From assembly GCF_016756535.1 (NCBI RefSeq), contig NZ_AP023247.1, forward strand, positions 2,728,501 through 2,792,500: a stretch of 64,000 bases of DNA, given 5' to 3'. How positions within the stretch are numbered: position 1 is the stretch's first letter; each line of letters begins with the position of its first letter. Shown in pieces: positions 2,019-53,475 of the stretch. The stretch is from Mesorhizobium sp. 131-2-1. GTDB lineage: Bacteria; Pseudomonadota; Alphaproteobacteria; Rhizobiales; Rhizobiaceae. The notes under the pieces are model-generated. The model did not search any database. It was not told where the DNA came from and saw only the letters and a program-made list of their open reading frames with translations. The position numbers and the translations under genes were made by a program.

Positions 2019-2416
2019 GCCAGCTGGCCGGGCGGCCGCACCCGCGAAGCCGAAAGGCTGCGGGTGAGGAAAGTCCGGGCTCCATGGAGACACGGTGCCG
2101 GTTAATGGCCGGCGGGGGCGACCCCAGGGAAAGTGCCACAGAAAGCAAACCGCCGCGGCGTTCGCCGCGGCAAGGGTGAAAGGGTGGGGTAAGAGCCCAC
2201 CGCGCGACTGGCAACAGGAGCGGCACGGTAAACCCCACCGGGAGCAAGACCGAATAGGGGCGGTGCGAGGGGAAACCCTCGAGGGCTGTTTCCGGCCTAC
2301 CGCCCGGGTAGGTTGCGTGAGGCGCATGGCAACATGCGCCCAAGATGAATGGCCGCCACGTTCCCGCGCTGCAAGGCGCGGGGGCCATACAGAACCCGGC
2401 TTACAGGCCAGCTGGC
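2019..2416 (+). ncRNA. rnpB: RNase P RNA
   Basis: The catalytic RNA of RNase P, which removes 5' leaders from tRNA precursors. The conserved CR-I segment GAGGAAAGTCCGGGC is at 2066-2080 and the CR-V segment AGAACCCGGCTTACA at 2391-2405. These two pair to form helix P4. The outer ends, GCCAGCTGGC at 2019-2028 and GCCAGCTGGC at 2407-2416, are self-complementary and form helix P1. The roughly 400-nt length and the type A layout fit alphaproteobacterial RNase P RNA. No protein-coding frame here is credible. Confidence 0.97.
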
Positions 2417-2487
2417 AATTCTCTCCGCGGTATCGTCTTGAAATCCGTTGAGATCAGGGGGTTGCGCCGTTCGGCGCGCCTGTTTGC

Positions 2488-44193: not shown

Positions 44194-44516
44194 CGATATC
44201 CCCTTGTGACGAGCAGAACGGCCAATGGCTGAAAGGGCGCGGCATCGACGATGCGGCCCCGGGTCCGTTGCGTGGTCTAGGACCTGAACGTGATGGTTGC
44301 GTGACAGGAGGGGTGCACTTGCCTTCTCCCCTTGTGGGAGAAGGTGGCCGAGCGAAGCTCGGACGGATGAGGGGTGCTGGACGGAGCGCTACCTTGAAGA
44401 TGCAAACGCTTAAAATCTCTAGTATCTTTTGACGCCGCGTTTCTTCCAGCACCCCTCATCCGTCTCGGCGCTACGCGCCGATCCACCTTCTCCCACAGGG
44501 GGAGAAGGGAAGGGCA
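44194..44516. other. 323-bp spacer upstream of the phytase-like gene
   Basis: It is dominated by the composite palindromic element at 44322-44509. Between its arms is a low-GC stretch (about 44398-44440). The promoter of the phytase-like gene would lie in 44194-44320. No protein gene is supported. Confidence 0.55.
44322..44509. repeat. Composite palindromic element, intergenic copy (family B)
   Basis: Left arm 44322-44381 and right arm 44445-44509 are inverted copies. Each arm holds its own small hairpins: CTTCTCCCC/GGGAGAAG, and CCGAGCGAAGCTCGG on the left or CGGCGCTACGCGCCG on the right, then GACGGATGAGGGGTGCTGG. The two arms would form a long stem with side hairpins and a 63-nt loop. An element with the same order of parts, shorter, sits inside the uvrD gene at 52449-52565. 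Confidence 0.8.
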
Positions 44517-50738: not shown

Positions 50739-53402
50739 TCACACCGCCGCGACGAACCCGTCCAGGACGCGTTTCTGGCCGGCCTTGTCGAAGTCGATGG
50801 TCAGCTTGTTGCCTTCGATGGCGGCAATGTTGCCGTTGCCGAACTTCTGATGGAAGACGCGGTCGCCGACGCTGAAGGCGGATGGCGTGTCGGCGACCGA
50901 TTTGGCGACCAGCTCGCCGTCGATGGTGCGGCCTTTGACCGAGGTGCGGCCGGCGCCGTAGCCGCTATCGGTCTCGCCATAGCCGATGCGCTCGACCTGG
51001 TGGCCGGAGCGCGTGCCCCAGTTGCGGTCGGTCGCCTCGGTGCGGTTGGCCTGCGCGCGCTGCCAGCCCGGCGTCGAATAGGTGTTGGAGAAGCTTCCCG
51101 ATTTCTCGGCGCCGATATTGTCGAAGCGCGAGGCGCCATAGGGGTTCTGCCTGCCGCCACGTCCCGAGGCAAACGAACCGCCGCCATAGCTGTTGCCGTA
51201 GCCGCCATAGGAGTTGCCGCTCTCGGCGACCTCGACATGGGTATTCGGCAACTCGTCGAGGAAGCGCGACGGGATGGTCGATTGCCAGAGACCGTGGATG
51301 AGGCGGTTGGAGACGAACCAGATGTGCAGGTTCTTCTTGGCCCGCGTCAGCCCGACATAGGCGAGGCGGCGCTCTTCCTCCAGGCCGGAGCGACCGCCCT
51401 CGTCCAGCGCTCGCTGATGCGGGAACAGGCCTTCTTCCCAGCCGGGGAGGAACACGGTCTCGAATTCGAGGCCCTTGGCCGAATGCAGGGTCATTATGCT
51501 CACCGCATCGAGCGACTCGCTCTGCTCGGCCTCCATGACCAGCGCAACATGCTCGAGGAAGGAGCGCAGCGATTCATATTCCTCCATGGAGCGGACAAGC
51601 TCCTTGAGGTTCTCCAGACGGCCCGGCGCTTCCGCCGAGCGGTCGTTCTTCCACATGTCGGTGTAGCCGCTCTCCTCGAGGATGGTCTCTGCGAGTTCGG
51701 TGTGCGGCGTGGTCTCCAGCGCCTTCTGCCAGCGCTCGAAATTGGCGGCGACCTCGCGCAAGGCGGCGCGCGGCTTCGGCTTCAGCTCGTCGCTTTCGGC
51801 GAGGTTGCCGGCCGCTTCCAGCATCGGGATGCGCAACGCGCGGGCGGTGTCGTGGAGCTGGCGGATGGTGGCTTCGCCGAGCCCGCGTTTCGGCACGTTG
51901 ACGATGCGCTCGAAGGCGAGGTCGTCGCCGCCGTTGGCGACGACGCGGAAGAAGGCCAGTGCGTCGCGGATTTCCATCCGCTCGTAGAAACGCGGGCCGC
52001 CGATGACGCGGTAGTTGAGGCCAAGCGTGATGAAGCGGTCCTCGAAGGCGCGCATCTGGAAGGAGGCGCGTACGAGGATGGCCATGTCGTTGAGATTGTG
52101 CTTGCCCCGCTGGTAGGCCTCGATCGTCTCGCCGACGGCGCGCGCCTCTTCCTCAGAATCCCAGGCGGCATGGACATGCACCTTGTCGTCCTCGGGATCG
52201 TCGCGGTCGGTGAACAGCGTCTTGCCGAAGCGGCCCTCATTGTGGGCGATGAGATGCGAGGCGGCACCCAGGATGTGCGCCGTCGAGCGGTAGTTGCGCT
52301 CCAGCCGGATAATGGTGGCGCCGGGGAAATCCTTGTCGAAGCGAAGGATGTTGTCGACTTCCGCGCCGCGCCAGCCGTAGATCGACTGGTCGTCGTCGCC
52401 GACGCAGCAGATGTTGACGGTAGCACGAGTTTCGGTCGAGCGCGCCTTACCCTCCCCTCGATGGGGAGGGTCGTCGCGAAGCGACGGGGAGGGGTGACTG
52501 GCGCCGGCGCTATCACCCCCGCCCGCGCCGCTGCGCGGCGCGACCTCCCCCATCGAGGGGGAGGTAGGTCTTTGCGCCAAGAGCCGCAGCCACATGTACT
52601 GCGCGGTGTTGGTGTCCTGGTACTCGTCGACGAGGATGTATTTGAAGCGCTTGTGGTAGTCCTTGAGCACGTCCGGATAGGCGCGGAAGATGCGGATCGG
52701 GTGGCAGAGCAGATCGCCGAAGTCGCAGGCGTTCAGCGTCTGCAGCCGCTCCTGATAGGCCTTGTAGAGTTCGCGGCCCTTGCCGTTGCCGAAGCTGCGG
52801 GCATCACCCTCGGGGATATCGGCTGGCACAAGCCCCTTGTTCTTCCAGCCGTCGATCATCTGGCCGAACTGCTTGGCCGGCCACCGCTTGTCGTCCAAGC
52901 CTTCGGCCTGGATGAGCTGCTTGATCAGGCGCACGACGTCATCGGTGTCCAGGATGGTGAAATCGGATTTCAGCCCGGCAAGCTCGGCGTGGCGGCGCAG
53001 CAGCTTGACGCCGATCGAATGGAATGTGCCGAGCCAGGGCATGCCCTCGACATTGCCTTCGCCGATCAGATGGCCGATGCGCTGCTTCATCTCGCGCGCG
53101 GCCTTGTTGGTGAAGGTGACGGCGAGGATCTGCGAGGGGAAGGCCTTGCCGGTGGCGAGGATGTGGGCGATGCGGGTGGTGAGCACCCGCGTCTTGCCGG
53201 TGCCGGCGCCGGCCAGCACCAGGACCGGGCCTTCCGTCGTTTCGACCGCCAGCCGCTGCTCGGGGTTGAGGCCGTTCAGGTAATCGGGCGTATCGTTGCG
53301 ACCGCTGCGGGCGGCCATGGCGCGCGCGGCAATGCCGGACGGGGCCGTGGGCCGCGCATTCGGTTCGTCAAAGAAGGGCATGTCTTCCGAAAACCCGGAC
53401 AT
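50739..53402 (-). CDS. uvrD: UvrD/PcrA-type DNA helicase carrying an in-frame palindromic element
   Basis: 887 residues, longer than the usual 720-830. Superfamily 1 helicase motifs are in order: Q-motif GLNPEQRLAV (44-53), Walker A GAGTGKT (65-71), VTFTNKAAREM, DEYQDTN (259-265), GDDDQSIYGWRGA (335-347), and later VSIMTLHSAKGLEFE and EERRLAYVGLTRA. Residues 280-318 are encoded exactly by a palindromic element (52449-52565), inserted between motifs II and III where relatives have a short turn. The C-terminal tail (about 740-820) is Gly/Ser/Tyr-rich and then ends in a conserved PcrA-like domain (VGDRVFHQKFGNGNIAAIEG). It acts in excision repair and fork restart. Confidence 0.95.
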   Translation of the reverse strand: MSGFSEDMPFFDEPNARPTAPSGIAARAMAARSGRNDTPDYLNGLNPEQRLAVETTEGPVLVLAGAGTGKTRVLTTRIAHILATGKAFPSQILAVTFTNKAAREMKQRIGHLIGEGNVEGMPWLGTFHSIGVKLLRRHAELAGLKSDFTILDTDDVVRLIKQLIQAEGLDDKRWPAKQFGQMIDGWKNKGLVPADIPEGDARSFGNGKGRELYKAYQERLQTLNACDFGDLLCHPIRIFRAYPDVLKDYHKRFKYILVDEYQDTNTAQYMWLRLLAQRPTSPSMGEVAPRSGAGGGDSAGASHPSPSLRDDPPHRGEGKARSTETRATVNICCVGDDDQSIYGWRGAEVDNILRFDKDFPGATIIRLERNYRSTAHILGAASHLIAHNEGRFGKTLFTDRDDPEDDKVHVHAAWDSEEEARAVGETIEAYQRGKHNLNDMAILVRASFQMRAFEDRFITLGLNYRVIGGPRFYERMEIRDALAFFRVVANGGDDLAFERIVNVPKRGLGEATIRQLHDTARALRIPMLEAAGNLAESDELKPKPRAALREVAANFERWQKALETTPHTELAETILEESGYTDMWKNDRSAEAPGRLENLKELVRSMEEYESLRSFLEHVALVMEAEQSESLDAVSIMTLHSAKGLEFETVFLPGWEEGLFPHQRALDEGGRSGLEEERRLAYVGLTRAKKNLHIWFVSNRLIHGLWQSTIPSRFLDELPNTHVEVAESGNSYGGYGNSYGGGSFASGRGGRQNPYGASRFDNIGAEKSGSFSNTYSTPGWQRAQANRTEATDRNWGTRSGHQVERIGYGETDSGYGAGRTSVKGRTIDGELVAKSVADTPSAFSVGDRVFHQKFGNGNIAAIEGNKLTIDFDKAGQKRVLDGFVAAV
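52449..52565 (-). repeat. Composite palindromic element inside uvrD, in frame (family B)
   Basis: The outer ends are the palindromes ACCCTCCCC...GGGGAGGGT (52449-52471) and ACCTCCCCC...GGGGGAGGT (52543-52565). Inside are two more hairpins, CGTCGCGAAGCGACG (52471-52485) and CGCCGCTGCGCGGCG (52527-52541), flanking the GGGGAGGGG and CACCCCC blocks. Total 117 bp, exactly 39 codons, aligned with the uvrD codons. The order of parts matches the intergenic element at 44322-44509. It encodes a Pro/Gly/Ser/Arg-rich loop (SPSMGEVAPR, then SHPSPSLRDDPPHRGEG). Confidence 0.85.
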
Positions 53403-53475
53403 TGTCCCCGAATGTAGTGATTCGGCAGCGAAAGACCAGAAGTGTCTCCGTTTTGTTCCGGTTTGGCGACAGGAT

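What the first reader, a model, noticed from the sequence alone, without database searches (positions are those of the whole stretch)
52449..52565. A palindromic repeat has become 39 in-frame codons of the UvrD/PcrA helicase
The DNA is a composite of palindromes with the same order of parts as the intergenic element at 44322-44509. It is exactly 117 bp, its ends fall on codon borders (residues 280-318), and the frame stays open, adding a Pro/Gly/Ser/Arg loop between helicase motifs II (DEYQDTN) and III (GDDDQSIYG). Repeats that insert in frame are well known in Rickettsia (RPE); this looks like a comparable event in a rhizobial repair gene. The loop may be tolerated because this turn is on the surface, an inference.
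Basis: partly seen in the sequence, partly recalled or inferred. Interest (0 to 1): 0.75.

Follow-up and report, generated by a model that had tools for sequence, protein, structure and literature searches.

The report
Palindromic DNA repeats inside a helicase
In Mesorhizobium and some related soil bacteria, small repeat elements have inserted several times, without breaking the reading frame, into one short turn of a DNA-repair helicase, so that this turn differs even between close species.

Summary
Confirmed and extended. Window 52449-52565 is a 117-bp head-to-head palindrome read in frame as residues 280-318 of a PcrA/UvrD-type helicase. It lies in the motif II-III turn, 3-4 residues long in E. 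coli UvrD. The element recurs at about ten places in the genome; two copies are in frame in ftsY. A sister element sits in the pyruvate dehydrogenase E2 linker of relatives. Outside the family 27 of 27 loci are short; in 30 other family genera with split matches, 27 are, so the short turn is probably ancestral. Insert class tracks flanking uvrD DNA only weakly. Inserts are under relaxed protein constraint. Best explanation: palindromic repeats persist in coding DNA where the protein is flexible, and the uvrD turn is reused and reshuffled. REPs inside UvrD/REP helicase genes are published (PMC3733652); a family-wide shared site was not found in ten searches.

The parts
50739..53402 (-). PcrA/UvrD-type helicase gene, 887 aa, frame open across the element
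   Evidence: best NCBIfam TIGR01073 pcrA, 766.8 bits, under its cut-off of 911.2; PF00580, PF13361
52449..52565 (-). 117-bp palindromic element core, codons 280-318
52434..52565 (-). approximate 132-nt (44-codon) net difference from the empty Mesorhizobium allele; right end ambiguous
   Evidence: (85 against 41 aa)
52449..52471 (.). outer hairpin, 9-bp stem, 5-nt loop
52543..52565 (.). outer hairpin, inverted partner, 9-bp stem, 5-nt loop
52472..52486 (.). inner hairpin CGTCGCGAAGCGACG
52525..52541 (.). inner hairpin GCGCCGCTGCGCGGCGC
52608..52628 (-). helicase motif II, DEYQDTN, residues 259-265
52374..52400 (-). helicase motif III, GDDDQSIYG, residues 335-343
44322..44509 (.). intergenic element with the same order of parts

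Best explanation
The segment is a copy of a dispersed palindromic repeat that became part of the coding sequence of uvrD/pcrA. Shown: it is a repeat, it is in frame, the site is empty in outgroups, and the same turn holds inserts of other sequence classes in related species. Inferred: elements of this superfamily insert widely, copies that hit folded parts of genes are lost, and in-frame copies survive only in flexible segments (the uvrD motif II-III turn, the FtsY N-terminal domain, the PDH-E2 linker). Once in uvrD the insert is tolerated rather than needed, drifts under relaxed protein constraint, is trimmed or joined by a second element, and is reshuffled between species, probably by recombination through the conserved motif II and III DNA on either side.
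For: Multi-copy: about ten places in the own genome. Coding hosts: two copies in frame in ftsY, class c element in the PDH-E2 linker between lipoyl and E3-binding domains in two genomes, with b-type or c-type inserts at that linker in 18 of 19 parsed loci of 30. Rarity in genes: 4 of 66 fetched copies of classes a, b, c lie inside an ORF (2 in ftsY, 2 in PDH-E2; rows are not independent and uvrD copies are not counted). Empty site: 27 of 27 class-level loci, 27 of 30 split-match family genera, 4 of 141 readable Mesorhizobium. Recurrence: class a also in another genus with different junctions (L172). Descent plus reshuffling: all 7 class-a-only alleles in the genus have AGA as the last shared arginine codon against 4 of 129 other inserted alleles, yet they are not one clade of the flank tree. 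Relaxed constraint: dN/dS 0.25-0.47 in inserts, 0.054-0.089 in 600 nt beside them. Youth: synonymous divergence 0.107 in class a inserts against 0.293 beside them. Turn position: E. coli UvrD has 3-4 residues there.
Against: The commonest class, d (98 of 228 parsed loci), is not clearly palindromic: mean fold z -1.24 against -0.59 in controls, 7 of 98 under -3, and has only one other copy per genome tested, so its origin as a repeat is not shown. My classes rest on motif patterns and class d lumps diverse sequences. The dN/dS of 0.25-0.47 is below 1, so some constraint (protein, DNA or RNA) may remain. No transposase of the Y1/RAYT kind was found in 4 genomes, so no mobiliser is known. Insert class is not fully random on the tree: 51 changes against a permuted mean of 61.8, minimum 56 of 200, and pairs at 4-6% flank divergence share class in 38% of 139 against 27.6% overall.
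Confidence: 0.82

Rival explanations
1. The inserts are selected: a long disordered loop in this turn gives Rhizobiaceae UvrD a new function (a partner-binding or regulatory loop), and repeats are merely the raw material.
For: 136 of 141 readable Mesorhizobium alleles keep at least 12 extra residues; reversion to the short form is rare in the genus (4 of 141); dN/dS below 1. PMC3733652 (section 17, part 1, read) speculates that REP inserts in repair genes change activity.
Against: Sequence, length (48-128 aa loops, one of 231) and class change between close species; four Mesorhizobium genomes and 27 of 30 split-match family genera do without; the same kind of insert occurs in unrelated proteins.
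Confidence: 0.15
2. Site-directed insertion: the elements aim at this DNA site or at palindromes already there, so the hotspot reflects target choice more than tolerance.
For: Second elements sit beside earlier ones (a+d in L140 and four proteins P0020, P0023, P0025, P0029; g+d in L168, L192).
Against: Junctions differ between lineages (L017 against L172); 27 of 27 class loci and 27 of 30 split-match family genera have the same conserved flanks and no insert; other hosts have unrelated flanks.
Confidence: 0.1
3. The segment is an ordinary low-complexity protein expansion of G+C-rich DNA and its likeness to repeats is chance.
For: Class d looks like this.
Against: For class a the nucleotide match to other genomic copies is E 4.5e-29, and the ftsY copies are read from the opposite strand, so the likeness is at the DNA level; fold z under -3 in 8 of 8 class a inserts against 2 of 57 control windows.
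Confidence: 0.03

Closest known systems
Rickettsia palindromic elements (RPE)
   Same: 100-150 bp palindromic repeats found in frame inside unrelated genes and tolerated (PMC10969869, passages seen).
   Different: Different lineage and, as far as seen, different sequences (not compared here); here one protein turn is reused by several element classes across a family, and alleles are reshuffled between species.
CGTC-tagged REPs of alpha-proteobacteria (PMC3733652, sections 15 and 17 part 1 read)
   Same: 9-bp stem and 5-nt loop, two hairpins head to head, mainly intergenic, some inside repair genes including UvrD/REP helicase, no known transposase.
   Different: Only one of the two hairpins is followed by CGTC; the paper says that, apart from recB in two Xanthomonas species, REPs in genes of one functional category sit at different sites, whereas here the uvrD site is shared. 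Its text does not name Mesorhizobium or FtsY.
RIME, Sm-repeats and ABC motifs of Sinorhizobium meliloti (PMC2573895, passages seen)
   Same: Dispersed intergenic palindromic or mosaic repeats of rhizobia.

Membership tests
Rickettsia palindromic elements (RPE) as a kind | palindromic repeat of about 100-150 bp in several copies | tested here: met
   117 bp; about ten places
Rickettsia palindromic elements (RPE) as a kind | in-frame insertion in more than one unrelated gene | tested here: met
   uvrD, ftsY, PDH-E2 in relatives
Rickettsia palindromic elements (RPE) as a family | sequence homology to an RPE family of Rickettsia | not tested
   no RPE sequences were fetched
CGTC REP superfamily | stem of 8-9 bp and loop of 4-5 nt | tested here: met
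   9 bp and 5 nt in both outer hairpins; criteria from Table 1 of PMC3733652
CGTC REP superfamily | unpaired CGTC tag at one end | tested here: inconclusive
   CGTC follows the hairpin at 52449-52471, but is paired in an inner stem; the other hairpin is followed by CGCG
CGTC REP superfamily | head-to-head dimers | tested here: met
   arms 52448-52473 and 52541-52566 are inverted, 85% complementary
RIME of rhizobia | sequence match to RIME1 or RIME2 | not testable with these tools
   the 1995 paper is known here only from a reference list; searches gave no sequence
RAYT-mobilised REP | Y1 transposase (PF01797) in the genome | tested here: not met
   0 of 4 Mesorhizobium genomes; control rings in 5 of 14

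The most novel reading that the evidence does not exclude
The uvrD motif II-III turn in Mesorhizobium and allied genera is an allelic cassette: repeats of several families are captured there, stacked, trimmed and exchanged between species by recombination through the conserved motif II and III DNA, faster than species diverge. With FtsY and PDH-E2 as further capture sites, palindromic repeats would be a standing source of new disordered segments in core proteins of rhizobia.
Probability: 0.45. Interest if true: 0.78.

Novelty: new variant of a known kind. Interest (0 to 1): 0.62.

Why it matters
In-frame repeats are usually seen as scattered accidents. Here one turn of one core helicase records many captures in a single genus, with empty, single, double and trimmed alleles all present, so the birth, spread and tolerance of a new protein segment can be followed and tested. 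It also warns that indels at this turn are unreliable markers for uvrD phylogeny, and that short-read assemblies tend to break there.

Full report
Observation. Window 52449-52565 is 117 nt inside an 887-aa ORF on the minus strand, codons 280-318. It is strongly palindromic and has two outer hairpins with 9-bp stems and 5-nt loops in head-to-head order. The intergenic element at 44322-44509 has the same order of parts. The gene is of the PcrA/UvrD family (Pfam PF00580 and PF13361); the best NCBIfam model, TIGR01073 pcrA, scores 766.8 bits, under its curated cut-off of 911.2. Motifs II and III are intact on either side.

Copies in the genome. A search of the own genome with 52440-52575 gave 16 matches at E<=0.001, counting both strands, which I group into about ten places. 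The best two after uvrD itself are both inside one ORF, ftsY, in frame and read from the opposite strand (TIGR00064, 318.9 bits, above its cut-off). The others lie outside coding ORFs by the test. Of 66 fetched copies of classes a, b and c in four genomes, uvrD copies left out, four lie in coding ORFs: two in ftsY and two in PDH-E2 (copies within 200 nt of an ORF end are not counted, and rows can be two arms of one element).

Orthologues in the genus. Of 146 Mesorhizobium-genus genomes, 141 could be read across the turn in one frame. Four have a 41-residue DEYQDTN-to-QSIYG loop, one has 48, and 136 have 53 to 128, one of these excepted at 231 with a long proline run that may be an assembly fault. 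The five unread ones are contig ends (L138, L144, L145), a run of N (L133) and a frame change (L131). By peptide patterns, 140 parsed genus loci fall into d 67, c 27, b 23, d+e 8, a 7, none 4 and one each of a+d, f, g and other.

Outside the genus. In 61 parsed loci of other genera of the family, chosen mostly for full-length matches, 60 have inserts: d 31, other 14, c 5, f 5, g+d 2, b 2, a 1. To correct that bias I took 30 genomes of 30 genera with weaker or split matches: 27 have loops of 36-48 residues, three have 60, 128 and 132. All 27 class-level loci parsed have the short turn, as do the 69 readable proteins in the set. The short turn is therefore the likely ancestral state, with inserts gained in part of the family.

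What the inserts are. Fold z under -3 occurs in 8 of 8 class a, 24 of 30 c, 17 of 25 b, 6 of 6 f, 1 of 1 g, 2 of 2 g+d, 1 of 1 a+d, 6 of 14 other, 1 of 8 d+e and 7 of 98 d, against 2 of 57 control windows of the same genes. Class b and c queries find many copies: 52 matches for b in G078, and 150, 146, 130 and 68 matches for c in G000, G104, G078 and G024, half-elements and both strands counted. Class d has one further copy, or in G024 one besides itself, at 76-77% identity, so its repeat origin is not shown.

Further hosts. In 30 FtsY loci the class-a peptide in reverse reading occurs in the N-terminal part of 16. In PDH-E2, the linker between the lipoyl domain and the E3-binding domain holds a c-type insert in 12 and a b-type insert in 6 of 19 parsed loci (30 fetched), and none in one (types read by eye; domains). 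All three hosts are flexible parts of core proteins; for uvrD, E. coli UvrD has 3-4 residues where this protein has 52, and the model gives no confident structure for 276-327.

History. All seven class-a-only alleles have AGA at the last arginine codon before the insert, against 4 of 129 other inserted alleles, so they share descent; yet they are spread over the flank tree. Alleles with class a followed by class d (L140, and proteins P0020, P0023, P0025, P0029) suggest that a entered a d-bearing allele and that d was later trimmed; the reverse order is not excluded. In the other genus, class a has different junctions (L172), which points to a separate insertion. Insert class is only weakly tied to the flanks: 8 of 24 pairs at 2-4% divergence share class against 27.6% overall; 51 changes on the genus tree against a permuted mean of 61.8, minimum 56; no windowed association. 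Flank segments also correlate poorly with each other (0.04-0.65), so the whole gene is mosaic.

Constraint. dN/dS is 0.25, 0.39, 0.47 and 0.42 in inserts of classes a, b, c and d, and 0.054-0.089 in the 600 nt after them; synonymous divergence of a, b and c inserts is a third to under two thirds of that of the flank, of d nearly equal. The inserts are thus younger or more recently shared than the gene, except d, and are under relaxed but not absent constraint. The helicase itself is under strong purifying selection.

Literature. PMC3733652 (passages, section 15, section 17 part 1) reports GTAG and CGTC REPs inside genes, naming UvrD/REP helicase, and says that apart from recB of two Xanthomonas species such REPs lie at different sites. 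PMC10969869 (passages) summarises RPEs. PMC2573895 (passages) mentions RIMEs, Sm-repeats and ABC motifs. I found no report of the shared uvrD site in searches. Verdict: a new variant of a known kind; the single insertion is ordinary in kind, the reused and reshuffled site is the surprise.

Noticed in passing
L403-L432 (FtsY of Mesorhizobium): The FtsY N-terminal domain carries further repeat-like peptides (AAPHPPAGTFSPYRDGEKEEA and SRGEGKGEG types) beside the class-a ones.
   Followed up: partly
L433-L458 (PDH-E2 of Mesorhizobium): The lipoyl to E3-binding linker alternates between b-type and c-type palindromic inserts among species.
   Followed up: partly
L131 (G047): UvrD changes frame inside a class-b insert, at a C run one base shorter than in its relatives; sequencing error or a broken gene.
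   Followed up: no
L127 (G003): UvrD loop of 231 residues with a very long proline run and a glycine run, probably an assembly fault at the repeat.
   Followed up: no
L138, L144, L145: Draft contigs end in or near the uvrD insert or the gene, as expected of a dispersed repeat.
   Followed up: no
L087, L111, L120, L130, L135, L136, L139, L148: A further module (SGSPGGR..DRTEAG) precedes class d; its fold z is weak (1 of 8 under -3), so it may be a different kind of insertion.
   Followed up: partly
window 2020-2419 (+): Bacterial RNase P RNA, class A (Rfam RF00010, 306 bits).
   Followed up: no
window 50850-53417 (+): An 855-aa open frame antisense to uvrD, most likely a by-product of high G+C.
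   Followed up: no
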